Part shown: piece after piece, positions 108 to 44,158 of the stretch | How positions within the stretch are numbered: position 1 is the first letter of the stretch | How the letters are laid out: every line of letters begins with the position of its first letter | DNA from: Tistrella mobilis KA081020-065 | Lineage (GTDB): Bacteria > Pseudomonadota > Alphaproteobacteria > Tistrellales > Tistrellaceae | Direction of reading: 5' to 3' | Length of the DNA stretch: 64,000 nt | NCBI RefSeq assembly: GCF_000264455.2 | Contig: NC_017957.2 | Coordinates: 124,001 to 188,000, forward strand | The notes under the pieces: model-generated | Database searches by the model: none | What the model saw: only the letters and a program-made list of their open reading frames with translations | Told to the model about the DNA's origin: nothing | Program-made: the position numbers and the translations under genes

Positions 108-1820
<1,713 letters not shown>

Positions 1821-29832: not shown

Positions 29833-30219
29833 AACGAAAAATCGCTGTTCATCGATCTTATTACACAGTTAGAATATGTTATTCGCCCTCTACCCTTCCC
29901 TTCCCGCCCCGCACGCCGCGGCGCCACACCTCGCTTGCGCGCGGAAGACGGGGATTGTTGACGAGGATGGTTGATGGTCGGGACCGATAATCCGTACCGG
30001 GCATCAACCCGCTGCATGACCCCGGTTATCGACCTTGATGCCGTGTTTTCGCAGCCATGCCCGATGCCTCGCGGGGCCTTTTACAGCCGATGAGAGCGGC
30101 CGTCCAGAGCGGGACCCGGCCAGGTTGGGGACCGTCAGATGTGGGACGAACAGATCGGGGCCCATCAGAGCAGGCACTGGCCGGCCGCGGCGGTACCCGG
30201 CCCGGTCTTGATCATTCAT

Positions 30220-32014
30220 GATTGCGCAAGATGGATCTGGCGAGAAATGGCCCGATGACGCGGCCTCACGACGGCGGAGAGCGACGGCACCGCGGATCCC
30301 GGCCACTTTCCGCCGCACCCGGCGTCCAACGGAACAGGACGGGACCAACCGCCGCATCGCCGCTCTCTCGCCGGATCTGGCCTGCGCCGGCCCCCCTTCG
30401 GCCAGACAGGGCCGGACGGGCCCCCCCTTCCAAGGCACTCTGCGGGTGCCAACCACCGGCGGGGCCATTCGGCCGGGGTGGCGGCCGTCAGTCACGCTTG
30501 CCAGTTCCAGATTGCGCAATATAGATCTGGCTGGAAACGGGGTGGTGCGGCAAGCCCCGGCGCCCCCTGGCCTCAGCCGTATCATGGCCAGATCCAGGCG
30601 GTGCAAGACCGTTCCGGGCACCAACGCCCGCGCCTGCCGCACCATAGGGGTGCCGATGACGGGTCGGCACAGAGAGCTTCCGCCATCCTCGCCAATTCCA
30701 GATTGCGCAGGATAGATCTGGCAGGAAATAGCATGGTCCAGCCAGCCCGACGCCTGCCGTGCCAGGCTGGTGGGCCGGTGGGCTGATCGGGCGCGGCGGG
30801 ATCCGCCATGCTCCGGCCGATACCTGCCCGCGCAGAGCTGTCATGGCTGAGCAGGGCCGTACCCAACGCGGCCTGCAGGTGCCGTAGACGAGCCGGGCCT
30901 TCAGGTCTGCGCGGAAGACCGCGACGATCCCCACCCATGCCCGAGGAGGGGCGGAGCCCGGCGTCCACATCCAGGCAGCGAGGCGCCAGGCTTACCGTGT
31001 TCGCCGGACGAGTGGGCGCGGCTGGGGCGCCGAGGTCGCGGAGGTCGCAACTATCACCGGAAATCTTGATTGCGCCAGAAAGATCTGGCTGGAAACAGCC
31101 TCATACAGCCACCCACCATCCGCGCCCTGGGGACCACTGCGGATGCCCGGACCCCATGGCCAACGAAAGGAGGGAGGGGGCGGGGCGGCAGTCATATCCC
31201 GCCGGATCGCCGCCTGAGCCTGGTGGCGGCGCCCGGTCCCGCGCCCCCGTCCGCGCCGGCTGCCGGTCTGTTCATCCTGTCGGGTCGGAGAGCAGGGGCG
31301 GCGAGGGGAGGGGTCTGTCTGCCAGTTCCTGATTGCGCAAGATGGATCTGGCAGGAAATAGCCTTATGAGGGCACGCGCTTTCGGCCGTCGGAGGTGACG
31401 CGCAGATGGGGGAGGGGGCTGGATCGGTGATCGTCCCTTATCTCCTTGTATTTCTTTGCAATTCTGGCGAGAAAATAGCGGAACGGACGACGACGACCGG
31501 CGCGGCCGAAGCAAGAGGCAAGCCTCTGCCATTTCTTGCAGGAACATGATTGCGCCAGATATTTCTGGCAGGAAATAGCAGCTTAAAGCGTTCATCCAGG
31601 GCAGGGGTGGACCGCAGTCAGGGGCGGAGCGGCCGGCTGCGGCGCTCGCCAGATCAAGATTGCGCAATGTTAATCTGGCTGGATCAGGCCTTCTTCTACC
31701 ATGTGGGCGTGCCGTGAGAGACCGGCACTGCCACACTGGCCGGGCAGGCGGGCGGCCGGGCAGGCCAGACGGTGACACTGGGCCCGGGCAGGCACCAGCC
31801 TGAACGAGATTGCGCCAGCTTTTTCCAGATTGATCCTGCCGTAATTCCGGCGCCCGGCCTGCCGGTCGATCCATCCGGATCCTGGCGCATCCCGCCTGAT
31901 CCCGCCTGATCCCGCCGGATCCCGACAGATCCGGCGGGATGCGGCAGGTAGGAGATGGTTGTTGCCTGCGTCAGCTCTTTCCTGATTGCGCAATATTTTT
32001 CTGGCAGGAAATGG
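30220..32014 (+). repeat. Nine dispersed 31-bp direct repeats (candidate centromere/control iterons)
   Basis: Copies start at 30220, 30510, 30701, 31068, 31331, 31548, 31658, 31808 and 31984, all in the same orientation. The shared left part is GATTGCGC(A/C)(A/G), and the right part is (A/T)TCTGGC(A/T)GGAAA(T/C)(A/G)G; the middle is variable and AT-rich. The copies at 31658 and 31808 are the most diverged. Spacing is irregular (110-367 bp), and the DNA between copies is unrelated, so only the 31-bp blocks are conserved. A tenth variant lies upstream of parA at 27071. This suggests a binding site for a partition or replication protein. Confidence 0.88.
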
Positions 32015-32146
32015 ACGCTGCGGCGGCGAAAGCGGCGTGCCGGGGCCAACTCGCCGGCGGCACCGGCTGCCGAGACGTGGTAGTCTGGCCGCGGACACAC
32101 CACCGCCAGCAGATGGGGGCGGCCACCCCCGGCCGCCCGGAGACGC

Positions 32147-33436
32147 ATGAAGCGACCGACCAAACGGACGGATACCCAGATCGACCTGTTCGTCGCACTG
32201 CCGGGCACCATCCCGACTTACGACCAGCAGGACACGATGGAGCTGCCCTTCTTCTCGCTGGCCAAGCCGACGCCGACCTCGCGCCGGTCTTCGATCGACT
32301 ACCGGGCGACGGACGGCAATACCGAGATCCATATCAACGTCACCGCGCCCGAGAGCATCGGCGTCGCCACGATCTGGGATGCCGACATCCTGATCTGGGC
32401 CGCCAGCCAGCTGCGCGCGGCGCTGGACCGGGGCGAGCCGACCTCTCCGACCATCCGGGTCTCGCTGTACGAATTGCTGCGCGGCATCGGCCGGCCGACC
32501 GGCGGCGACGAATACCGCCGCATCCTGAAGGCGCTGGAACGGCTGAACGCCACCTTCATCCGCACCAATGTCCGCAGCGGCCGCCGCCGCGACCCCAAGG
32601 GCTTCCACTGGCTGGAGAGCTATTCGGCCCCGCTGGACGAAAACGGCCGCTCGCTCGGCATCGAATTCACCATCGCGGACTGGCTGTACAAGGGCATCGT
32701 GACCGACCGGCTGGTGCTGAGCATCGACCGGTCGTATTTCCAGCTGTCGGGCGGCATCGAACGCTGGCTTTATCGCCTGATCCGGCGCTATTCCACCGCC
32801 AACACCCAGGGCTATGTGCTGCCGCTGCGCTTCCTGCACGAGACCAGCGGCACAACCCAGCGCTATGCCGATTTCGCGAAGGAACTGCGCCGCACCATCG
32901 CCCGCCAGCGCCTGCCCGGCTATTGGCTGGATCTGCGCACGCAGGAAGGCGTGGGCGAGGTGCTGTACTTCGTGGCGCGCGAACACCTGGCCCCGGTCCT
33001 GCCGGCGCCAGAGGTGGAGGCGAACGGCCGCAAGCGCCGCAAGGCACCGGCACCGGCGCCCGAAACCGCCACCGACGCGCTGATGGAAACAACGGTGGAA
33101 ATCCTGCAACCGCCGGCCAGGTCCCGGCGCAAGGCCGCCGCATCCGCAGATCACGCCGCCAACGCCGCGGCGGGCGAGGGGCCCAAGCCCCGAACCCGAC
33201 GCAAGACCACAGCCGCACCGGCCGATACGCCGCCCGCAGGGGCCGAAACCCCGACAGACCGGCCGCTGACCGCCGATCTGCTCGACCAGGCGGTTCAGGC
33301 CGCGGCAAAACCCGCCCGCAAGCCGCGCAGCACAGGCCGCAAGACCGCCGGTGCCGGGGCAACCGCCCCGAAAAAACCCGCCGCAACGCGCAAACCGCGC
33401 GCAACCACCACCGCGAAGGGGGCGAAACCCCGATAG
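32147..33436 (+). CDS. repA: Plasmid replication initiator, RPA family (RepA)
   Basis: A 429-residue initiator of the RPA/RepA family found on alphaproteobacterial plasmids. Family marks are IDLFVALPG, MELPFFSLAK, IWDADILIWAASQL, YELLRGIGRPTGGDEYRRILKALERLNATFIRT and LSIDRSYFQLSGGIERWLYRLIRRY. The conserved domain covers residues about 10-290; the last 130 residues are a low-complexity Ala/Lys/Arg/Pro-rich tail. GGAGA precedes ATG 32147. Two 19-bp iterons lie within the 3' end of the gene (33239 and 33418), the second covering the stop codon. It probably binds these and the downstream iterons to start replication. Confidence 0.92.
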   Translation: MKRPTKRTDTQIDLFVALPGTIPTYDQQDTMELPFFSLAKPTPTSRRSSIDYRATDGNTEIHINVTAPESIGVATIWDADILIWAASQLRAALDRGEPTSPTIRVSLYELLRGIGRPTGGDEYRRILKALERLNATFIRTNVRSGRRRDPKGFHWLESYSAPLDENGRSLGIEFTIADWLYKGIVTDRLVLSIDRSYFQLSGGIERWLYRLIRRYSTANTQGYVLPLRFLHETSGTTQRYADFAKELRRTIARQRLPGYWLDLRTQEGVGEVLYFVAREHLAPVLPAPEVEANGRKRRKAPAPAPETATDALMETTVEILQPPARSRRKAAASADHAANAAAGEGPKPRTRRKTTAAPADTPPAGAETPTDRPLTADLLDQAVQAAAKPARKPRSTGRKTAGAGATAPKKPAATRKPRATTTAKGAKPR

Positions 33437-34347
33437 GGTAGGGGACGCGCCGACCGGCGCCATAACGGCAGGGATGACGGCGTAAGCCCTTGATCATCAA
33501 GACAAGATGGCGCGGGCGCGAGCCGGCCGCCGCTGCGGCCAGGGCGCCGATACGCCATGGCGGGACGACACAACCCGACAGGCCCGCCCGACACGACACC
33601 CCGGCAGCACGGCACGCCTGCGGATAGCACAACCGGCACAACCCTTTGAACCATAGGCAGCTTCCGGGCACCACCTCTGCGCCGGGGGGCGAAACCCCGA
33701 TAGAGCGGCGCCGGCCGCCACGCCCCCTGCGCGCAGGGCAGAACGAGGATACGCCCCCCATACGCAGTCGCCGGCGGCCGGAATTGTGGTCGCCAGGGGC
33801 CGAAACCCCGATAGCACGCGCGTCGGAACCGGCTTTCGGGGGGCCGAAACCCCGAGAGTCAGGGCCAGGGGAGGGCGGTTCACGGGGGCCGAAACCCCGG
33901 CAATTCCGCCAGTTCGGGGGGTAAAACCCCGTGTCATGGCCGGGCGAGGGCCACAGCCACGCCCCCGGGGCCGTGTCGGCAGCCGATCCGCCGGCCGGGC
34001 ATCGGGCAGACGAAACCTCTCTGTTGCCGCATTTTTTTTGCCAGGGGCCGAAACCCCGACTCCGACAGCACCGGCCCGCAGCCACCAGCCACGCCCCGGA
34101 AAACCGGTATCCCACAAGCCGATTCGGGGTTTCGGCCCCCAAGCGTCCCAGAGACGCCAGACCGACCCACCACGGCCCGGACCGCGGGAGTCCGGCAGGA
34201 ATCCACGGCTCCCGCAGGGGACAGCGCGGCGCGGCTCTCATACCTCTGCCATCAGAGGCCGAACACACCCGCAGCAGGGCGTTTCAAATGCAGCGAAGAC
34301 TCCGGGGGCCGAAACCCCGATTCCCCTGGGGGCCGAAACCCCGATGA
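33239..34347. other. Iteron array, probable replication origin (oriV)
   Basis: Eleven copies of a 19-bp element with consensus GGGGCCGAAACCCCGATAG. Direct copies start at 33239, 33418, 33685, 33796, 33840, 33885, 33917 (degenerate), 34044, 34305 and 34329; one inverted copy spans 34121-34139. The core GGGG..GAAACCCCG is nearly invariant. Each core is itself a short inverted repeat (GGGG/CCCC). The array begins inside repA and continues through more than 900 bp of non-coding DNA with a T8 tract at about 34032-34039, a typical layout for an iteron-regulated origin next to its initiator. Confidence 0.87.
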
Positions 34348-34774
34348 TTATTTGCAGAAACCATGTATTGGGGGCTTGACAGACGCGGGAAGGCGTCCGG
34401 ACTCGGCTTGACTCCAGGCTTTGGGGTGCGTTTCTCTTGTTTCTGACCGGAGTTGGGCCGGTTTTCTCATGCAGGCCGTGAGTCGTTCTGCTCCGACCGC
34501 AGATCACGAATGCAGGCCACGAACAGGGAGATGCGCCGATCATGACCCCGAAATGAGATAGTCCCGTTTACGAAGCCGCTTTGGGCGACACCGCAAACGG
34601 GACCGACCTCGACTGACAGACTGGCATTCGCCGCCCTATCAGCACCGTGACAAGTCTGATTCTAGGCGTAAGTGCTACTGTTTTCAAGCGCCGACAAGGC
34701 GTTGACGGTCTTCCTTTGCTTGTCGTCCGGATGTGACACCGCGGATCACCAGATCCGGCCGGGAGTGTTTTGTC
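33437..34774. other. 1.3-kb non-coding region downstream of repA
   Basis: This region contains most of the iterons up to 34347, then about 400 bp without a gene. The latter holds a TTGACA hexamer near 34376 and an inverted repeat at 34561-34603. Long frames on the minus strand here run through the iterons and are not considered genes. Confidence 0.65.
34561..34603. repeat. Inverted repeat between oriV and the winged-helix gene
   Basis: GTCCCGTTT (34561-34569) and AAACGGGAC (34595-34603) are perfect 9-bp inverses around a 25-base loop. It may be part of a small regulatory RNA, an operator pair or the end of a decayed mobile element; nothing decides between these. Confidence 0.5.
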
Positions 34775-35935
34775 GTGTCCGACATCTTTGAACCGACCCG
34801 CCTCGGCTGGCTGCAAAGCGTGCAGCGCAGCCGGGAGACGGATGTTTATGGCCTGGCGCTGGCCGCCAGTCTGAGCGTGCTGGCCGGCAGCGACCATGTC
34901 GTGCGCGCCAGCCTGCGCGAACTGGCCGAAACCGCCCGCATCAGCCCCAAAACCGCCGGCGACCGCCTGCAACGCCTGGCCGAAGACGGTCTGCTGACCC
35001 TGGTCGACACCGGCGCCACCGGCGGCCATCAGCCGCGGCGCTTCTATCGGCTCGCCATGGCCGGCGTTGTTCCAGGCAGCCGGGGGCATGATGCCCGGGA
35101 GGCGGCGGCCATCCCCGCGGCCATGGCGACGCCGAAGCCCACGGCATTGGCGGCAGACCCGGCGCCGATCGTCGATCCGATGATCCGGCTGGTCAGCCGC
35201 ATCCAGCAGACGGCCGCGGCCCCGGGCTGGAAACGGGTGAAGGCGGCCGCCGCGGTGGCCGCCGCCGTCGAGGCCGCCGGCCTCGATGCGGTGGAAGACT
35301 TCGCCGACCGTCTGGGGGCCGGCCCGAAACGCCCGGCCTATGACATCGCCGTCGCCCTGTCGCAGCTGGCCGCCACCGCACCGACCACTGCACCGGCAGC
35401 CACCGGCGATGCCGGCCAACGCGACGACGACGCGCGGCACGAGACCGGGGCCGCCCCCGAGGAGAGACGATTCGAGGATGGGCGATCCGAAGACAGACGA
35501 TCCGGGGATGGGCAGACCCCGCCCCCTGCACCGCCGCTGCCCGCCGCCTATCGGGCCGAAGCCGAAAGCCTGGTGGTCCTGGCCGGGCTCGACCCGGCGC
35601 GCCGGCGCACGCTGGACGCGCTGGTGACCGCAAGCGGCCGCCCGGCCCCCTGCTGGGGCCTGCGCGACATGACCGTCACCGCCATCGGCCGGGCCCTGGC
35701 CGAGGCCGATCACGGCCATATCGTCATCCCCCCATCCGTCGCGGATCTCCGCCACGACCTGCGCCCCAGACCCGCCTGCCAGACCACCCTGGCGCCCATA
35801 GGACTCACCAGGAACAGGACTCTTCCTTCAAGACCATATCCGGACTCGGATTCGGAGCCGGGGTTGATGAGAATGGCAGGACGGCTTGCCGGCACGTCCG
35901 GTGGCGAGATGGTCGGACAGCGGGTCACGGGGTGA
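34775..35935 (+). CDS. Winged-helix DNA-binding protein of unknown function (plasmid backbone)
   Basis: A 386-residue protein starting at GTG 34775 with GGGAG nine bases upstream. Residues about 35-105 look like a winged helix (HVVRASLRELAETARISPKTAGDRLQRL, then AEDGLLTLVDTG). The rest is Ala/Pro-rich with a polar linker (a short EDGRSEDRRSGDG repeat near residue 235) and no recognisable domain. It lies between the iteron origin and the giant STAND gene, ending 43 bp before it, so the two may be cotranscribed. It could be a copy-control or partition accessory protein, or the regulator of the defence gene. I do not recognise the family. Confidence 0.65.
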   Translation: MSDIFEPTRLGWLQSVQRSRETDVYGLALAASLSVLAGSDHVVRASLRELAETARISPKTAGDRLQRLAEDGLLTLVDTGATGGHQPRRFYRLAMAGVVPGSRGHDAREAAAIPAAMATPKPTALAADPAPIVDPMIRLVSRIQQTAAAPGWKRVKAAAAVAAAVEAAGLDAVEDFADRLGAGPKRPAYDIAVALSQLAATAPTTAPAATGDAGQRDDDARHETGAAPEERRFEDGRSEDRRSGDGQTPPPAPPLPAAYRAEAESLVVLAGLDPARRRTLDALVTASGRPAPCWGLRDMTVTAIGRALAEADHGHIVIPPSVADLRHDLRPRPACQTTLAPIGLTRNRTLPSRPYPDSDSEPGLMRMAGRLAGTSGGEMVGQRVTG

Positions 35936-35978: not shown

Positions 35979-38900
35979 GTGAAGGACAGCCTGCTTGGTG
36001 CATCGGCCTCGGGCGCCGGGGATGATTTCCACCACCGCTGGGTGGCCCGGGAAGTGCTGCAGCTGCTGGACCCCGACAGTCCGGTTGCCGGTATCACCGT
36101 CGAGGGTCTGCCCGGGGATGCGGTTCACCAAGGCCTTGGAGAGCATGGCCAGGCGGTGGACGTTACCTTGAGGCTGAGCGACGGCAGCTTTCGCTATCTC
36201 CAGCTCAAATACTCGGCAAGTCATCCGGAACAGGCCTGGAGCTGGGCGCGGCTGCTGACGCCCAAAAACCCCCGCAAGCCCGAAAGCAGCGTTCTGGGCA
36301 AGCTTGCCGGGCTGACGACGGCCGGCGAACTGCAGGGGTGCTTCTCCATCGTCACCAACCAGCCGCTTGCCGGGGAGGTCGCGCGCGAAGTCGAGGCATT
36401 GCGGGGCGAGGGGCCGGTCGAGGCGGCGGTCGAAGCACGCGGGCAAGAGCTTTGCGAAAAACTGACGCTGGATGCCGACCAGCTGCGCCGCTTTCTCAGG
36501 GCCTGGGATCTGGCGGGCTTCGGCGAGGTTTCACGCCTGCGCTTGCAGACGGAGGTTATCGCCCGGCTTGCGACGAGCATCGATGGCGATGCGCGGTCCG
36601 ATGCCGATTATTTCCGGCAGAAGATCATGGAGCTGATGCTGCCCGAGGGACGGCAAGAGCCGGAGATCACGCGGGAAACGGTGCTGAGCTGGCTGGGGAT
36701 CGGGACCGAGGCGGATCTGTTTCCGGCACCGTCACGGATCATCCCGCCGGAACACCTGATCACGCGCCGGGTGGCGCGTACGCTGGTGGAGAAACTGACC
36801 GCACCGGCTGAACGGCCCTTGCGGATCCATGCCGATGGCGGCTGCGGCAAGACCAGTCTGGTGACCGCGCTTGGGGGGTTGCTACCCCCAGGATCGGAGG
36901 TCTTCGTCTATGATTGTTATGGCGGCGGGCTGTTCCTGGCGAGCGATGCCGGTCGCCACCGGCCGGAGCAGGCCTTCATCCAGATCGGCAACGAGATGGC
37001 GGCGCGGCTGCGCACGCCCTTCGTCATCCGGCGCCAGACGATCAGCGCCGAGCCGTTCAGGGTTTTTCATCGCCGGGTGACGGCGGCATCCCGGATCCTG
37101 GCGGACCGGGATCCGGCGGCGCGGCTGGTGCTGGTCTTCGATGCGGTCGACAATGCCCGCAAGGCGGCGGAGCATTGGAGGGACGACTGCTTTCTCGATC
37201 CCCTTCAGGCGGCAAGCGGCTGGCCCGACAATGTCCGCATCGTGGTGACCTGCCGGACCGCCCGGCTGGACGAGGTGGGGCCGGCCTGGCGCTATGAAGA
37301 CTTTCTGATCGAGCCCTTCGATGAGGCCGAGACCCGCAGCTTCGTGGCGCTACGGCAACCGGCATGGCCGGTGGCTGTCGCCGACCGGCTGTTCGACCTG
37401 ACCGGCGGCAATCCGCGGCGCCTGGCCTATGCGGTGGACGGCCTCAAGGAGGATGGGGCAGGGCAGGCGGTCGAGCGTCTGCTGCCGCGGGAACCGGGGC
37501 TGGATCCGCTGTTCCGGAAGCGGATCAGGGAAGCGGGGATCCGGTTTGCCGACGAGCGGCTGGTGTGGCGGGTGCTGGGCGCGCTCGCCCGTTTGCCCCG
37601 GCCGGTGCCGGGCGAGATCCTGGCGGCGGTCACCGGCCTGACGGCCCCGGATATTCAGGACATCGCCACCGATACCGGCGGTCTGACCCATCATCCGGGC
37701 GGCTGGTCGTTCACCGACGAGGATTTCGAACATGTCGTCGGGATCGAAACGGCCGCCGACGGACCGGCGCTGCTTTCTGCCGCCGCAGATCTGATCCAGG
37801 CCCGGGCCGGGCAGGATGCCTGGGCCGCCCGGGCGCTGGGTCAGGTGCTGGTCGGCGCGGATCGCCTCGATGCGCTCTATGATCTGGTCAGGGGAGATCC
37901 GGCCTTTCCGGACGACATGTCGGAGGGGACCAAGGCCTATGTGAAGACGCAGCGCCTTGCCCTCGCCATCCGGGCCTGCCGTGCGCGCGACGATATCGAT
38001 CAGGCGACCCTGCTGCTGATCGCGCAGGCAGAAGGGCTGCATCGGCAGAGGCTGCTGAACGAGCTGATCCTGGGCAATCTGGATCTGGCGTGTCGGTTTG
38101 AGCGGGAAACGGCGGAGCGGCTGGTTCTGTCTGATCCGACGCACCGGGAACATCGTGCGCGACTTGATGTCGAACTGGCGGCAGCCCTGGCGGAGACCGA
38201 CAAGATCGCAGCACGCCGCCATGAATTGTGGTGGGAGATCTATCTCAGATACCACCGGGACAGGCTCGACGGTCGTGACGTCAACGACGAGATGCTTGCG
38301 GCCGAGTACCGGTTCAACCGCGACATATCGGGTCAGGAAATGGCCTTGCGCCGCCTGAGGCGCTGGCGCCCGCTCACAGCTCTGACGGGGGTGTTCCGCA
38401 TCCTCGCCGAACAGGATGCCGGGTGGCGACCGCAGGTCCTGCTGGAGGTCATGGACGGGAAACGCTGGCCACCGGTCATTCTGGCCCCGCTGATGACGGC
38501 TGCGCTGCTTGCGGGGATCGGCTTCGACGATCCGATCCTCCGTGCGACCTTGCGGCGGCTGGCCGGGGCGAGCCGTGCCCGCTGGTCGTCCCAATCCGGC
38601 AACAGACCCCGCAACCAACCGCTCCTCGCCACGGATGAGGCCGTCCTGTTCCTGTGCGAACGGGCGGTGATCGATCCTGGCCTCCACGACACGGTGCGGA
38701 CCATTATCGATAAGGCGTTTCCGCGGCCGGATGTCGACGACGAGGAAGCGCTTTCTGGAGTCCGGGCGAAGGCCGTGCACTATGCCCGGATGTTTGCTCT
38801 GCGCGAAGTGCTCGACGGCAGCCCGGTAGATATCGAAACCTGGCTCATTCCCGAGAAGGAGATGCCAACGTCGCACCCTGCTGGCCAACGACAGCACCAT

Positions 38901-41900
38901 CACGATGATGAGCCAAGCCGGGAGCAGTTCTTGAGCGACCATCGTAACAGGGCATTGATTTCTCTGATCAGGCCTTGGGGTGGCGCGCGTGCAACGATGT
39001 CGTTTTTTACCCGGGAGGCGGATACCGATGCTGCGTGGGCGACTTTCACTTCGGCGATGCACGCCGAACACCCAAATGAAATGACGCTTCATCGGGACGC
39101 CGTCTGCCTGCTCCTTCGCGCCCATATACTGCATCAATGTCTGGGTGGCACGGACGTTACAACCCTCTTCGAGGGCATGTGGAGGCTGCTGAAGAGTTGG
39201 CAGGTCTCGCTGACCGACGTCCAGATCGATCTCGTCCGGTCGCTGACCCTGACACCTCAGGGCCATGACGCGGCGGCGGCCCTGCTCTCGATCCTGGAAA
39301 CATCGCTGCCGGGGGCGTTCGGTTCGGCGAAACACCTGTCGGACGCGCAGGCTGACTGCGCCCGGGCCGCCCTGCCTATTGATCCCGATCTGGCACAGCA
39401 TTTCTTCGCTGAAGCGATCAGAAGTACTGAAAAGGTCGATATCGAGGCGGCGGCGGAGCTGGCCGCCGCCTCGGCGGTCAGCCGGGCGGGGCTGGGCGGG
39501 ACGCGGGCGGACCGCCTGAGGCTTGCGCAGCGGCTGGGGGATGCCGCCGGGGCCACGGCCGTGGCGCTCGCCTGGGACGGCTTTCCCTGGGCGGATGTCA
39601 TCACCGGCATCGCTGCGGCGGATCTCGGGGTCGGCCTGGCCGCTGCCGCCCGCTGGCACGATCTCGGGGAGGTGGCGTATGAGACCACCATCCCGGCTCT
39701 GCTGACCAGCCGGGCGGGCGAGGCCCTGGGCCTGACCCGCCGATATGCGCTCGCCTGTCTGGCGGGTGATGACTGCCCGACTCTTGCCCGGATCGCCGGC
39801 GGAACCCCGGTGCCCGAGAGCATCATCGCCCGCGAGCTGCACGACGCTCTGATCTCCGGAGACCCCGCGCAGGCAATGGCGACCTTCGAGCAGATCGGCG
39901 GCCTGCCGGGCGCGGCCGCGAGCCCGTCCCGGCTGGCGGCCCAGGACTGGTACGAGCAGATGCAATCCTGGAATTTGTCGGGGGCGAGTGGGGCGGCCTC
40001 CACGCCTTCAGATCCGCCCGCAGACCCGCCGCTGACGACAGCCGAGGCGGTGAGGGCGGCCCTGGCAGAACCGATGATCGACTATGTCCGGCTTGCCGCG
40101 CGGGTCGGCGGGCGCCATCTCCGGGTGGGTTTTCTGGAGGCCGCCGTGGCCAGTGCCGCGCCGCGCGGAGATCTGTGGATCGTATTGCCCCGGATCATCA
40201 AGAGGTGGCGGGATTATGCACCGGTCGCCAACTGGGCGCGCGAGAACCTGATCCCCCATCTGCCGGACGCGCTGCCCACTCTTCTCGCATGGACCGGTCA
40301 GAACCCGCGCGGCATCGAAAACCTGCTGCAGGCGACGGGCCTGCCGCCGGAGGCGCAGGCCGAGGGGCTTCTGGACGCGATCGCCCGCAATGCCGACCAT
40401 CTCTCGGCCGACAGCCTGTTCACGCTGATCGGCGTTCTGGCCGCCCGGGTCCGCCCCGAAACCCGCAACAGCCTGGCCGGCGATCTGATCACGCGCATCG
40501 CCGGGCGCGTGGGGCGTGAGCCGCGGGTCGTTCTCTTCGGCCAGGAGGTGCCGGAAGATCCGACCCTCTGCCTTGCCCGCCTGATCTTTGCCGCCATGGG
40601 CGACATGGACGGCCGGGTGCGCTGGCGTGCGGCCCATGCGGCGCTGATCCTGATCGAGGATGGCGACCCGGTGGTGGCGCCCTTGATTGCGCAGCTGGCA
40701 GTGGAGGCGGAACCGGTCTTCTCAAGCCGGGATTTCTACGTCTATGCCGCCCGCGAACAGCTGTTATGGACCCTCTGGCGCGGGGCGCAAACGGCGCCCG
40801 CGGTGATCGCCCCCCATGCGCCGGAGATCCTGGCGCATCTGCGCGGCACCAGCCATCTGATGGCGCGCGAGGCGGGGCGGCGGTTGCTGCTTGGCCTGGC
40901 TGAGCGCGGCCATATCGGTCTGGGCGATGCGGATCGGCTGTGGCTCGATGGTCTGAATCGGAGGGCGTTGCCGCGCAGCCCGGGGAAGGGGGGTGCGGCG
41001 GGCGGCCGGCTTCACGACGGGAAGACGCGCGCGTTCAGCTTCGACATCACCGACACCATACCCTATTGGTACAGAGGCCCCGCGGCCTTCTTCGGTCTGG
41101 AGATGGACGCGTTTCTGGACCGGGTGGAGGCCTGGATTGACGGCCGGTGGGGATATGGTGGAGCCGGTCATCACGGACGGGAGGCGCGGACGAAGCGTCT
41201 CAACAGCGCGTCTTTGGGAGCCTCGTCACACAGCCAGGGCGTGCGACCGCTTTTGGCGCCGCTCTCCAGATATCTGGAATGGCACGGCATGATGTGTGCC
41301 CTGGGCGAGTTGATCGGGACCCGGCCGCTCGTTGCAGACACAGGCATGTATGGGGACTTCGACGACTGGTGCGACGGCCATCTGCCGACGATCGGGCCGT
41401 TCTGGCTCAGCGATCTGCGCACCCCGCCGCCCATGGAGCCGCGTTTCTGGGGCGTGTTGCCGGACGGTGACGTGGCTGCGAATCGTGTCTCTGGGAACGA
41501 CATGTGGCCGCACTCAGTCCATGACGCCGTGTTGACCCGGGAACTCTGCGCGGCCGATGGGGGGCGTGTCGTCGCGGGGGATTTCACACTGCGCTGGCAG
41601 GTACATCAGCAGCGTGTCAGCATTCGCTCGGCTCTGGTTGCGCATGACCGGGCGGCTGATGTCGCGCACCTCATGCTTCAGGCAGACAGCCACATGGATT
41701 TCATCGTGCCTGGCGTCGGAGATCATCCGGGTAAGCCGTTCAGCGAGCGCTTCACAGGCTGGCTCCGGTACGACGACTCCGATGTCCGTGGGGATGAACA
41801 TGACGAGGCCCGCGGCGATATCTCCGGCATAGCTGCCGCGCCCTGCCATCCGGCCCTCCCGCTGGTTCACGACCCCCGCGCCGCGGCCTTCGTGGATAGC

Positions 41901-42170
41901 GGGGGGCGGCCGTTGATGTGGCTTGCGCAGTGGTCTTCCGCCGGCCGGTCGGGCAGCTCGGGCTGGCGCCTGACGGCCGGGACCGAGGCGCTGGACCGGC
42001 TGGTGCAGACCAGCGGGATGACCCTGCTGACCTGTGTCGAAATCAGGCGGACGTATTCAGGCGACGACCGTCGTACAGAGCCGCCGCCGACATATTGGGC
42101 CGTCTGGCTTCACGAAGCCGATGGCGGGCTGCGATATGTCGGCCAGTCCTGCACCCGCCGATCCCCTTGA
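35979..42170 (+). CDS. Giant STAND NTPase with N-terminal nuclease-like domain (Avs-like defence candidate)
   Basis: About 2063 residues from GTG 35979, which has GAGG ten bases upstream; in-frame starts exist up to 35886. Residues 1-90 match the dsDNA-nuclease (DUF4297/Cap4) pattern of the PD-(D/E)XK fold: E42 in ITVEGLPGD, D61 in QAVDVTLRLSDGS, then Q75-L-K77. A P-loop (HADGGCGKTS) lies near 284-293, a Walker B-like strand (RLVLVFDAVDNA) near 378-390 and a sensor-type VVTCRTARLDEV near 425, the layout of STAND/NACHT ATPases. The remaining 1500 residues are helical repeats and a distinct C-terminal region, with no catalytic motif that I recognise. No membrane segment is visible. By analogy to Avs proteins, a phage protein would be sensed by the C-terminal part and trigger DNA cleavage; this is inference. 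Confidence 0.82.
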   Translation: MKDSLLGASASGAGDDFHHRWVAREVLQLLDPDSPVAGITVEGLPGDAVHQGLGEHGQAVDVTLRLSDGSFRYLQLKYSASHPEQAWSWARLLTPKNPRKPESSVLGKLAGLTTAGELQGCFSIVTNQPLAGEVAREVEALRGEGPVEAAVEARGQELCEKLTLDADQLRRFLRAWDLAGFGEVSRLRLQTEVIARLATSIDGDARSDADYFRQKIMELMLPEGRQEPEITRETVLSWLGIGTEADLFPAPSRIIPPEHLITRRVARTLVEKLTAPAERPLRIHADGGCGKTSLVTALGGLLPPGSEVFVYDCYGGGLFLASDAGRHRPEQAFIQIGNEMAARLRTPFVIRRQTISAEPFRVFHRRVTAASRILADRDPAARLVLVFDAVDNARKAAEHWRDDCFLDPLQAASGWPDNVRIVVTCRTARLDEVGPAWRYEDFLIEPFDEAETRSFVALRQPAWPVAVADRLFDLTGGNPRRLAYAVDGLKEDGAGQAVERLLPREPGLDPLFRKRIREAGIRFADERLVWRVLGALARLPRPVPGEILAAVTGLTAPDIQDIATDTGGLTHHPGGWSFTDEDFEHVVGIETAADGPALLSAAADLIQARAGQDAWAARALGQVLVGADRLDALYDLVRGDPAFPDDMSEGTKAYVKTQRLALAIRACRARDDIDQATLLLIAQAEGLHRQRLLNELILGNLDLACRFERETAERLVLSDPTHREHRARLDVELAAALAETDKIAARRHELWWEIYLRYHRDRLDGRDVNDEMLAAEYRFNRDISGQEMALRRLRRWRPLTALTGVFRILAEQDAGWRPQVLLEVMDGKRWPPVILAPLMTAALLAGIGFDDPILRATLRRLAGASRARWSSQSGNRPRNQPLLATDEAVLFLCERAVIDPGLHDTVRTIIDKAFPRPDVDDEEALSGVRAKAVHYARMFALREVLDGSPVDIETWLIPEKEMPTSHPAGQRQHHHDDEPSREQFLSDHRNRALISLIRPWGGARATMSFFTREADTDAAWATFTSAMHAEHPNEMTLHRDAVCLLLRAHILHQCLGGTDVTTLFEGMWRLLKSWQVSLTDVQIDLVRSLTLTPQGHDAAAALLSILETSLPGAFGSAKHLSDAQADCARAALPIDPDLAQHFFAEAIRSTEKVDIEAAAELAAASAVSRAGLGGTRADRLRLAQRLGDAAGATAVALAWDGFPWADVITGIAAADLGVGLAAAARWHDLGEVAYETTIPALLTSRAGEALGLTRRYALACLAGDDCPTLARIAGGTPVPESIIARELHDALISGDPAQAMATFEQIGGLPGAAASPSRLAAQDWYEQMQSWNLSGASGAASTPSDPPADPPLTTAEAVRAALAEPMIDYVRLAARVGGRHLRVGFLEAAVASAAPRGDLWIVLPRIIKRWRDYAPVANWARENLIPHLPDALPTLLAWTGQNPRGIENLLQATGLPPEAQAEGLLDAIARNADHLSADSLFTLIGVLAARVRPETRNSLAGDLITRIAGRVGREPRVVLFGQEVPEDPTLCLARLIFAAMGDMDGRVRWRAAHAALILIEDGDPVVAPLIAQLAVEAEPVFSSRDFYVYAAREQLLWTLWRGAQTAPAVIAPHAPEILAHLRGTSHLMAREAGRRLLLGLAERGHIGLGDADRLWLDGLNRRALPRSPGKGGAAGGRLHDGKTRAFSFDITDTIPYWYRGPAAFFGLEMDAFLDRVEAWIDGRWGYGGAGHHGREARTKRLNSASLGASSHSQGVRPLLAPLSRYLEWHGMMCALGELIGTRPLVADTGMYGDFDDWCDGHLPTIGPFWLSDLRTPPPMEPRFWGVLPDGDVAANRVSGNDMWPHSVHDAVLTRELCAADGGRVVAGDFTLRWQVHQQRVSIRSALVAHDRAADVAHLMLQADSHMDFIVPGVGDHPGKPFSERFTGWLRYDDSDVRGDEHDEARGDISGIAAAPCHPALPLVHDPRAAAFVDSGGRPLMWLAQWSSAGRSGSSGWRLTAGTEALDRLVQTSGMTLLTCVEIRRTYSGDDRRTEPPPTYWAVWLHEADGGLRYVGQSCTRRSP

Positions 42171-44158
42171 CCCACCGCCCCCACCCCGGCACAACGGATC
42201 GGGCACAGACACCAGACAGCGAGGGCCGGTTCCTGACGACGGGAGAGAGGGGCGGCAGGCAGGGGGAGGGCCGGCGGCGCATCCGCAGCCTGGGCCTCCA
42301 GGCCCTGGGGCTTGCCGGGGTTGCGGTGGCGGCCCTGGTGACGGCGCTGGTGCATGGCCATGTCACCCGCAGCAATCTGCACGATCTGCGCGAGCGGAGC
42401 CTGAACACGTTGCGGCTGACCGAGGCCACCTTGCGCGGGCAGCTGCTGCGTTTCGACCGGCTGCCGGGGCTGCTGGCCGATGAGCGGACGATCCGGGCGC
42501 TGCTGCTGAGGCCAGGGGATCCCGGGCTGGCCGATCAGGCCAACCGGTATCTGAAGGACACCGCCACCCGGCTGGGGGCATCGGATCTCTATCTGATGAC
42601 CCGCGACGGCGAGACCATCGCTGCCAGCAATTACGACCAGCCGCAATCCTTCGTCGGCGGCAATTTCGCCTTCCGCCCCTATTTCCGCGATGCGCTGACG
42701 CAGGGCGAGGGCCGGTTCTTCGCGCTGGGCACCACCTCCAACAAGCGCGGCTATTATGTCGGCGCGCCGGTGGTGGTCTACGACCGGGCGGCAGGGCTGC
42801 GGGCGCTGGGCGTGCTGGTCATCAAGGTCGATCTGGACGATATCGAACGCGCCTGGGCCGGCAATGATCCGCGGATCATCGTCACCGACCCCGAAGGCAT
42901 CGTGTTCATGTCCAACCGGCCCGACTGGCTCTATCGCGGTCTCGGCCGACGCAGCGCCGAGGACATGGCCCGGTCGCGCGCCACCCGGCGCTATGCCGAC
43001 CAGGAGGTGGGCGAGATTCCGGTGATCGCCCGGCGCCATCTGGAGCTGGGCAGTCTGGAAGGGGGGCGCGACGCCGGGGCGGATCTGATCTGGGTTGCCA
43101 CTGAAGGTGGTGGAGAAAACGAATATCTCGCGGTTAAGACGCAGATGCCGGATGCCGACTGGACGGTGATGGTGTTGAGCGCCACCGCGGCCGCGCGGCT
43201 GGATGCGCTGGTCTTTGCGATCGCCGCCCTGCTGGCCATGGGGGTCACGGGCACCGGCGGCATGCTGGTCTGGCAGCGCCGCCGTCAGCTGGCCGAGCGG
43301 CTGGCGGTGCAGCAGGCGACGCAGGCCGAACTGGAGAGGCGGGTGACCGCGCGCACCGCCGAACTCGCTCGCACCAACCGTGCGCTGGAAGAGGAGGTCG
43401 AGGAACGCATCGCCGCCGAGGCCCGGCTGCGCGAGACCCAGAGCGAGCTGATCCAGGCCGGCAAACTGGCGGCGCTGGGCCAGATGTCGGCGGCGCTCAG
43501 CCATGAGTTCAACCAGCCACTGTCGGCCGCGCGCAATTATGCCGAAAATGCCGGCCTGTTCCTGGCACGCGGCGAGTTGGCCGAGGTGGAGGCCAATCTG
43601 GGCCGCATTCAGGAGATGATCGACCGCACCACCCGGATCAGCCGCCATCTGCGCGATTTCGCCCGCAAGCCCGATCAGGCGCTGCGCCCGGTGGCGCTGG
43701 CGCCGACCATCGCCGCGGTGCAGGAACTGCTGGGCTGGCGGCTGCGCCAGGCCGGCGCCGAATTGATCGTGGACCTGGACGATCCGGATCTGGCAGTGAC
43801 CGCGGGGGCGGTGCGGCTGCAACAGGTGCTGGTCAACCTGCTGACCAATGCGCTGGACGCGACCGCCGATGCCGCCGATCGCCGGCTGCATCTTCAGGCC
43901 CGGCGCGTGGCCGGGGGCCGTGTCGAGCTGCGGCTGCGCGATCACGGGCCGGGCGTGCCGGTGCAGCTGCGCGCGCGGATCTTCGACCCGTTCTTTTCGA
44001 CCAAAGAGGTCGGCAAGGGGCTGGGGCTCGGCCTGTCGATCTCCTACAACATCGTCAGCGATTTCGATGGCGTGCTGGAGGTGCAGGATCATCCGGGCGG
44101 CGGCGCCGAATTCGTGGTCCGCCTGCACGAGGCCGATCGGGAAGGGGAGGGAACATGA
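42167..44158 (+). CDS. DctB-like sensor histidine kinase (start uncertain)
   Basis: A membrane histidine kinase paired with the response regulator that follows (4-bp overlap). It shows a first membrane helix (LGLQALGLAGVAVAALVTAL), a dCache-like periplasmic sensor (DLYLMTRDGETIAASNY, FVGGNFAFRPYFRDAL) and a second helix near LVFAIAALLAMGVTGTGG. A coiled coil follows, then the H-box ALSHEFNQPLSAARNYAEN, N-box LVNLLTNALDA and the G-boxes. No ATG, GTG or TTG occurs between 42170 and the first helix. The only ordinary in-frame start is TTG 42167, which overlaps the stop of the STAND gene (TTGA). A non-standard start near 42280, after GGGGGAGG, is the alternative. Confidence 0.85.
   Translation: MTHRPHPGTTDRAQTPDSEGRFLTTGERGGRQGEGRRRIRSLGLQALGLAGVAVAALVTALVHGHVTRSNLHDLRERSLNTLRLTEATLRGQLLRFDRLPGLLADERTIRALLLRPGDPGLADQANRYLKDTATRLGASDLYLMTRDGETIAASNYDQPQSFVGGNFAFRPYFRDALTQGEGRFFALGTTSNKRGYYVGAPVVVYDRAAGLRALGVLVIKVDLDDIERAWAGNDPRIIVTDPEGIVFMSNRPDWLYRGLGRRSAEDMARSRATRRYADQEVGEIPVIARRHLELGSLEGGRDAGADLIWVATEGGGENEYLAVKTQMPDADWTVMVLSATAAARLDALVFAIAALLAMGVTGTGGMLVWQRRRQLAERLAVQQATQAELERRVTARTAELARTNRALEEEVEERIAAEARLRETQSELIQAGKLAALGQMSAALSHEFNQPLSAARNYAENAGLFLARGELAEVEANLGRIQEMIDRTTRISRHLRDFARKPDQALRPVALAPTIAAVQELLGWRLRQAGAELIVDLDDPDLAVTAGAVRLQQVLVNLLTNALDATADAADRRLHLQARRVAGGRVELRLRDHGPGVPVQLRARIFDPFFSTKEVGKGLGLGLSISYNIVSDFDGVLEVQDHPGGGAEFVVRLHEADREGEGT

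What the first reader, a model, noticed from the sequence alone, without database searches (positions are those of the whole stretch)
35979..42170. Giant nuclease-STAND NTPase gene embedded in the plasmid backbone: candidate Avs-like defence system
One gene of about 2063 codons has an E...D...QxK nuclease-like N-terminus (E42, D61, Q75/K77), a P-loop near residue 284 with a STAND-type Walker B near 380, and about 1500 further residues with no recognised domain. This is the architecture of Avs anti-phage sensors, in which target recognition by the C-terminus triggers the nuclease. The C-terminal third, including aromatic stretches such as TDTIPYWYRG and DFDDWCDGHLP, does not recall any Avs1-4 sensor that I know, so a new sensor type is possible. 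The gene sits between the iteron origin and a transporter operon.
Basis: partly seen in the sequence, partly recalled or inferred. Interest (0 to 1): 0.87.

Follow-up and report, generated by a model that had tools for sequence, protein, structure and literature searches.

The report
Divergent Avs3 phage sensor lacking partner
This giant plasmid gene is a distant version of Avs3, a known bacterial anti-phage sensor thought to destroy DNA when it meets a phage protein; this branch lacks the usual partner gene and seems to swap pieces of its sensor between strains.

Summary
In detail: one intact 2063-codon gene at 35979-42170, with invariant E42/D61/K77 nuclease residues and a STAND NTPase. The Avs reading is right; the "new sensor type" reading is not. 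The protein is homologous to Avs3a along its length (PADLOC 3e-116; SeAvs3, PDB 8dgc, 1e-79), and its C-terminal third alone matches SeAvs3 1484-2050 at 5e-25. The TDTIPYWYRG and DFDDWCDGHLP stretches fall on conserved Avs3 positions. It is still unusual. (1) It belongs to a strongly supported clade in which no separate Avs3b gene was found: two Sphingobium relatives have a C-terminal tail resembling the Avs3b N-terminus, the window gene and its same-species relative have nothing. (2) Between these two same-species alleles, two segments (residues about 716-1082 and 1864-1953) differ at 66-69% of codons against 15-17% elsewhere, with high or saturated synonymous divergence: a mosaic of diverged alleles, perhaps of the target-contacting surface. 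Most likely mechanism: a phage terminase-type protein binds the helical/C-terminal sensor, the NTPase oligomerises, the nuclease degrades DNA. Ligand, activity and the effect of lacking Avs3b are untested. New variant of a known kind.

The parts
35979..42170 (+). avs3a-like gene, 2063 codons, GTG start
35979..36548 (+). residues 1-190, Cap4/PD-(D/E)XK-type nuclease domain with E42 (36102), D61 (36159), Q75 (36201), K77 (36207)
   Evidence: conservation; profile-profile match to Avs3a N-termini E 1.3e-22; Pfam Cap4_nuclease matches 1 of 19 family members, not this one
36729..37778 (+). residues 251-600, STAND NTPase; Walker A about 285-292 with K291, Walker B to D388
38124..39224 (+). mosaic block 1, residues 716-1082, helical repeat part of the sensor
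   Evidence: 251 of 364 codons differ from the same-species allele; dS per 50-codon window 0.58-1.60 or saturated; helical in the model
40341..42128 (+). residues 1455-2050, conserved Avs3 C-terminal region
   Evidence: E 5.4e-25 to SeAvs3; E 6.2e-54 profile-profile
41568..41837 (+). mosaic block 2, residues 1864-1953, with beta strands in a low-confidence model
   Evidence: 59 of 90 codons differ; dS 0.52-0.63
32147..33436 (+). RepA-type replication initiator (context)
   Evidence: PF10134
30206..34345 (+). two iteron-like direct-repeat families (D1 30206-32012, D5 33238-34345; context)
34733..35935 (+). 400-aa gene with a sub-threshold winged-helix match, next to avs3a (context)
   Evidence: found in 3 of 3 genus genomes
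42284..44158 (+). Cache-type sensor histidine kinase directly downstream, where other Avs3 loci carry avs3b (exact start not determined)
   Evidence: no Avs3b match

Best explanation
A single-gene relative of Avs3 (AVAST type III) without Avs3b. Inferred mechanism: during infection a phage DNA-packaging protein, most likely the large terminase subunit, is bound by the helical superhelix and C-terminal domain; ATP-dependent oligomerisation of the STAND module brings the N-terminal Cap4-like nucleases together, and they degrade phage and host DNA, stopping the infection at the cost of the cell. Shown here: full-length homology to Avs3a, conserved nuclease and NTPase residues, no detectable Avs3b, an Avs3b-like tail in the Sphingobium sister lineage, and a mosaic of two sensor segments between alleles. 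Inferred from SeAvs3 and other Avs proteins: ligand, oligomerisation, DNA cleavage, cell death.
For: Sequence: PADLOC Avs3a 3.1e-116, NCBIfam Avs3a 7.1e-140, SeAvs3 1.1e-79 in two stretches, 3-1228 and 1464-2030. All 19 family members match Avs3a in both libraries, nothing else in NCBIfam at 0.001, and in PADLOC 3 of 19 also match LmuA weakly (best 4.1e-5). Profile-profile E: nuclease 1.3e-22, STAND 8.2e-46, block 1 1.8e-6, middle 2.1e-9, C-terminus 6.2e-54 (no decoy comparison was run). Fold: 8dgc is the first Foldseek match in a library of 350,542 chains for both halves, E 1.8e-27 and 9.1e-18; VIA Z 20.9 over 783 residues and 15.7 over 576, in register (247-1130 with 246-1132; 1000-2056 with 994-2082), next best 15.6 and 10.6. 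Catalytic residues conserved. No stop inside in either strain; overall dN 0.105, dS 0.242. Three relatives lie near defence genes. Literature, passages only: PMC12931631 states that Avs1-Avs4 nucleases cleave phage and host genomes on recognising terminase, portal or Ksap1; PMC12799240 reports activation of an Avs1 system by terminase.
Against: NCBIfam score 467.8 is far under the equivalog cut-off of 2800. Avs3b was not found in the locus or the genome. No defence gene among 10 neighbours scanned; of the two flanking genes one has only a Csa3 match at 0.04. Residues 716-1440, where ligand choice may lie, are the least conserved part of the family. The same-species relative has H where the family mostly has Y1696. 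The models are weak (pLDDT 68.4 and 57.3; residues 1-57 under 50), with TM-scores to 8dgc of only 0.14-0.28. VIA did not align residues 1-246, so the nuclease fold rests on sequence. No experiment.
Confidence: 0.82

Rival explanations
1. A defence sensor of the Avs3 fold whose C-terminal part recognises something other than terminase (a weaker form of the first reader's new sensor type: same fold, new ligand).
For: Only 20-21% identity to the two-gene Avs3a of Klebsiella and Janthinobacterium; residues 716-1440 are the least conserved part of the family; sensor segments differ sharply between alleles.
Against: The C-terminus is clearly Avs3 and its signature residues are largely kept.
Confidence: 0.25
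2. A decaying Avs3 that lost its partner Avs3b and no longer works.
For: No Avs3b found in locus or genome; the C-terminus ends roughly 70 residues before that of the Sphingobium relatives.
Against: Intact frame in two strains with the same end, catalytic residues kept, dN/dS 0.20-0.53 in the mosaic blocks where it can be computed, and Sphingobium relatives without a separate Avs3b.
Confidence: 0.1
3. A non-defence STAND regulator of the neighbouring plasmid or transporter genes.
For: The gene lies between replication and transporter genes, without defence neighbours.
Against: Nuclease residues conserved; for this protein the only PADLOC and NCBIfam match is Avs3a; relatives lie in other contexts, three of them near defence genes.
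Confidence: 0.03

Closest known systems
SeAvs3 / Avs3a of AVAST type III (PDB 8dgc, Avs3 bound to phage PhiV-1 terminase)
   Same: Nuclease-STAND-superhelix-C-terminal domain in the same order and register; same catalytic residues.
   Different: About 20% identity to the Klebsiella Avs3a; no Avs3b gene found; two segments mosaic between alleles; ligand unknown.
Sphingobium Avs3-like proteins L003, L004
   Same: 44-45% identity over the full length; no separate Avs3b (whole genome checked for L004 only).
   Different: Have an extra C-terminal tail of roughly 70 residues that matches the Avs3b N-terminus over 49 residues (L004) and 20 residues (L003); L004 also has a downstream Mrr-type gene.
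Rhizobium sp. BT03 Avs3-like, L006
   Same: 26% identity over the full length; in the sister branch of the tree (100/99).
   Different: Has a separate overlapping avs3b.

Membership tests
Avs3 (AVAST type III) | N-terminal Cap4/PD-(D/E)XK nuclease | tested here: met
   E42, D61, K77 in 19 of 19 and Q75 in 18 of 19; profile-profile E 1.3e-22 to Avs3a N-termini. By homology and motif only: Pfam Cap4 matches 1 of 19 members, not this one, and the model is poor at residues 1-57.
Avs3 (AVAST type III) | STAND NTPase with Walker A and B | tested here: met
Avs3 (AVAST type III) | C-terminal sensor homologous to that of SeAvs3 | tested here: met
   E 5.4e-25 for residues 1465-2030; VIA Z 15.7, rmsd 22.2, 576 aligned
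Avs3 (AVAST type III) | NCBIfam equivalog cut-off for Avs3a (2800 bits) | tested here: not met
   467.8 bits; so not filed as an Avs3a equivalog, only as an Avs3-like variant
Avs3 (AVAST type III) | Partner gene avs3b (its being part of the type is recalled, and seen in L006-L009) | tested here: not met
   0 matches in G000, G001, G002 and the L004 genome, while the two records known to carry it match; no open frame for it before the histidine kinase gene
Avs3 (AVAST type III) | Recognition of the large terminase and DNA degradation | not testable with these tools
   needs co-expression and biochemistry
Avs1, Avs2, Avs4 or Avs5 | Match to their own models rather than Avs3a | tested here: inconclusive
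   Only Avs3a matched this protein at E 1 or better in PADLOC and NCBIfam; that these libraries hold models of the other types is recalled, not checked

The most novel reading that the evidence does not exclude
An Avs3 lineage that no longer needs Avs3b (separate gene, then a fused N-terminal piece, then none) and whose ligand specificity is exchanged between strains by recombination of two distant cassettes (residues 716-1082 and 1864-1953) that together form the target-contacting surface, in the manner of NLR allelic series.
Probability: 0.3. Interest if true: 0.65.

Novelty: new variant of a known kind. Interest (0 to 1): 0.47.

Why it matters
If right, it gives a natural experiment on two points of Avs3: what the partner protein Avs3b does (one lineage keeps only a fused piece of it, the next nothing), and which parts of the 1500-residue sensor choose the ligand (two same-species alleles differ mostly in two segments, so exchanging them is a direct test). 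As a report of a new Avs type it would be wrong.

Tried and rejected
Rejected: a new sensor fold. Rejected: a hidden Avs3b in the downstream frames of the window (three forward frames printed; Avs3b profile over six-frame open frames of 60 residues or more). Doubted: simple positive selection as the cause of the two variable blocks, since synonymous divergence is raised as well; seven 50-codon windows outside the blocks do have dN/dS above 1 (1.05-1.81), on 1-4 synonymous changes each. Rejected: tRNA-Ala at 33675 as an integration site; it is 94 bases long and overlaps an iteron copy.

Led nowhere: Gao et al. 2022 (recalled reference) is not held, so the terminase-contacting residues of SeAvs3 could not be mapped onto the blocks. 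Viral contigs gave one full-length relative (L030, fetched again as L039) and one partial (L029), none with the Klebsiella query. The enclosing order holds 3 genomes. Paper searches: 'avs3b' hits 2 unrelated papers, four spellings of type III AVAST 0, 'avs3' 32 papers, mostly unrelated by title; some searches were broader listings. Most subscription papers are not held, so this is no proof of absence.

Rows dropped: of 17 plasmid records 11 were fetched and 8 used; H2 (same organism as H3), H9, H10, H14, H15, H17 were not fetched, and L026 (gene interrupted), L028 (TIR protein, other architecture) and L040 (no annotation) were left out. Of the other loci L029 (partial), L037 (contig end, 558 aa) and L038 (38 profile positions) were left out of the alignment of 19. 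L036 and L027 have little downstream DNA (295 and 1089 bases), so avs3b is not fully excluded there. The mosaic rests on two alleles. One 50-codon window outside the blocks (201-250) also has high dS, 0.65.
Full report
Observation. The frame at 35979-42170 is a single intact gene of 2063 codons. The window lies in a 692-kb contig (C2, 124001-188000) of a 6.5-Mb, 5-contig genome. No call names the host or its class. Upstream are a RepA-type initiator (PF10134), two iteron-like repeat families (8 copies at 30206-32012, 9 copies at 33238-34345) and a 400-aa gene; downstream a Cache histidine kinase, a sigma54 regulator, a TAXI-type (NMT1_3) binding protein and a DctM transporter gene.

Identity. 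Pfam gives only sub-threshold P-loop matches. For this protein PADLOC gives Avs3a alone (3.1e-116), NCBIfam Avs3a alone (467.8 bits against a cut-off of 2800), and the PDB SeAvs3 8dgc alone at E 1 or better (1.1e-79, two stretches). The C-terminal 609 residues alone find SeAvs3 1484-2050 at 5.4e-25, next match 0.65. Profile-profile comparison of the window clade (4 sequences) with 7 Avs3a proteins that have a separate Avs3b aligns every part: E 1.3e-22 nuclease, 8.2e-46 STAND, 1.8e-6 block 1, 2.1e-9 middle, 6.2e-54 C-terminus (parts were cut from a joint alignment and no decoys were compared). Two AlphaFold2 models from alignments of 4 sequences (residues 1-1130, pLDDT 68.4; residues 1000-2063, pLDDT 57.3) both have 8dgc as first Foldseek match (1.8e-27; 9.1e-18). 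VIA places residues 247-1130 on 246-1132 (Z 20.9, rmsd 31.6, 783 aligned) and 1000-2056 on 994-2082 (Z 15.7, rmsd 22.2, 576 aligned). The large rmsd shows that the overall curvature of these models is not to be trusted; the register is what counts.

Motifs. In an alignment of 19 relatives, E42, D61 and K77 are invariant and Q75 is kept in 18 of 19; G288, G290, K291, D388 and D391 are invariant. Y1696 and W1697 of the TDTIPYWYRG stretch are kept in 16 of 19 each (the same-species relative has H at 1696), and W1797 of DFDDWCDGHLP in 17 of 19.

Relatives. In a scan of genome contigs 6 stretches matched and 2 are relatives, both Sphingobium, 44-45% identical over the full length. Of 385 genomes of the class, 3 have a match (own, a same-species genome G001, and G175); with a family profile, 8 of 398 genomes of the phylum, own included. 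17 plasmid records match, all under 60% identity. The third genome of the genus, G002, has no match: its plasmid aligns with the window through repA and the 400-aa gene up to 35881, then differs, and its nearest histidine kinase is only 39% identical and on another contig. The segment is therefore accessory; a precise empty site was not shown.

Avs3b. Other Avs3 loci carry avs3b overlapping the 3' end of avs3a (annotated in L008 and L009; PADLOC in L006 and L007). A profile from 7 such proteins finds a separate Avs3b in 11 of the 19 loci of the tree; 7 of these 11 are the sequences it was built from, and L030, L032, L033 and L034 are new. The window and its same-species relative have none, and a whole-genome search found none in G000, G001, G002 or the L004 genome while both records known to carry it matched (the 14 well-known control genomes do not ring, in this call or). 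The two Sphingobium proteins run on past the window protein's end, and their last 160 residues match the Avs3b N-terminal domain at 18.3 bits (L003, 20 residues aligned) and 16.6 bits (L004, 49 residues aligned); the best of 1000 shuffled tails scores 5.6, and no other tail exceeds 5.9. In the tree the window and same-species genes (100/100) and the two Sphingobium genes (90/91) form one clade (100/100), sister to Rhizobium L006 and G643, which have a separate Avs3b (100/99). The simplest story is separate gene, then fused and trimmed, then lost. Against a tidy series: L035, the next branch outward, shows no Avs3b in 1479 downstream bases, and a further branch (L027, L023, L036) shows none either, L036 and L027 with little downstream DNA. 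The tree needs 3 changes of the no-Avs3b state and is not rooted, so loss may have happened several times and direction is inferred.

Mosaic. Window and G001 proteins are 83% identical. Segmentation of codon differences gives five parts: 1-715 (123 of 711 codons differ, 17%), 716-1082 (251 of 364, 69%), 1083-1863 (129 of 781, 17%), 1864-1953 (59 of 90, 66%), 1954-2063 (16 of 110, 15%). Per 50 codons, dS is 0.52-1.60 or saturated inside the blocks and 0.02-0.27 outside, one window (201-250) excepted at 0.65; five neighbouring genes have dS 0.05-0.19. dN/dS inside the blocks is 0.20-0.53 where it can be computed; seven windows outside exceed 1 on few synonymous changes. G+C at third positions drops from about 0.80 to 0.73 and 0.63 in block 1 and to 0.71 and 0.77 in block 2 (window and relative). 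Over the 17 kb that align in one piece, no 250-base window outside these blocks falls under 80% identity; the iteron region beside that piece does in part. High synonymous divergence in sharply bounded segments points to exchange with a diverged allele rather than fast substitution alone. Neither allele is clearly nearer to Sphingobium in the blocks (differences of at most 3 points), so the donor is unknown. Block 1 is helical and among the least conserved parts of the family (7% of equal windows are lower); block 2 is of average conservation (61%). That the blocks touch the ligand is a guess.

Mechanism. From work on Avs proteins (passages of PMC12931631, and of PMC12799240; the SeAvs3-terminase complex by its PDB title only), the most likely action is ligand binding by the C-terminal two thirds, STAND oligomerisation, nuclease activation and loss of phage and host DNA. 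Nothing of this was tested here.

Context. Defence genes lie near three relatives: Upx upstream of L004 (3.8e-168) and an RmrA-model match downstream of L003 (7.8e-49), among 10 neighbours scanned there, and an annotated McrC gene near L007. In the window, 0 of 10 scanned neighbours match PADLOC at 0.001.

Novelty. Filed as an Avs3-like variant, not as an Avs3a equivalog, since the equivalog score and the partner gene were tested and not met. In the held library I found no paper on Avs3b, which says little because most subscription papers are not held.

Noticed in passing
window 30206-34345: Two unrelated iteron-like families flank repA: 8 copies of a 43-nt unit upstream, 9 copies of an 18-nt GGGGCCGAAACCCCGAT-type repeat downstream. 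The upstream region aligns at only 72-79% between same-species plasmids while the RepA proteins are 98% identical.
   Followed up: partly
L004:16443-17609: An Mrr-type restriction endonuclease gene (PF04471, E 1e-7) starts 25 bases after the Avs3-like gene of Sphingobium xanthum, a possible extra effector.
   Followed up: no
L030:297-7242 (IMG/VR contig of 44.5 kb): A full-length Avs3a with a separate Avs3b, next to the Klebsiella gene in the tree, lies on a contig held in a viral collection.
   Followed up: no
L027, L023, L036: A second deep Avs3a branch (100/100) without a detected Avs3b; downstream DNA is short for L036 and L027.
   Followed up: partly
window 33675-33768: ARAGORN tRNA-Ala call of 94 bases overlapping an iteron copy; probably spurious.
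   Followed up: partly
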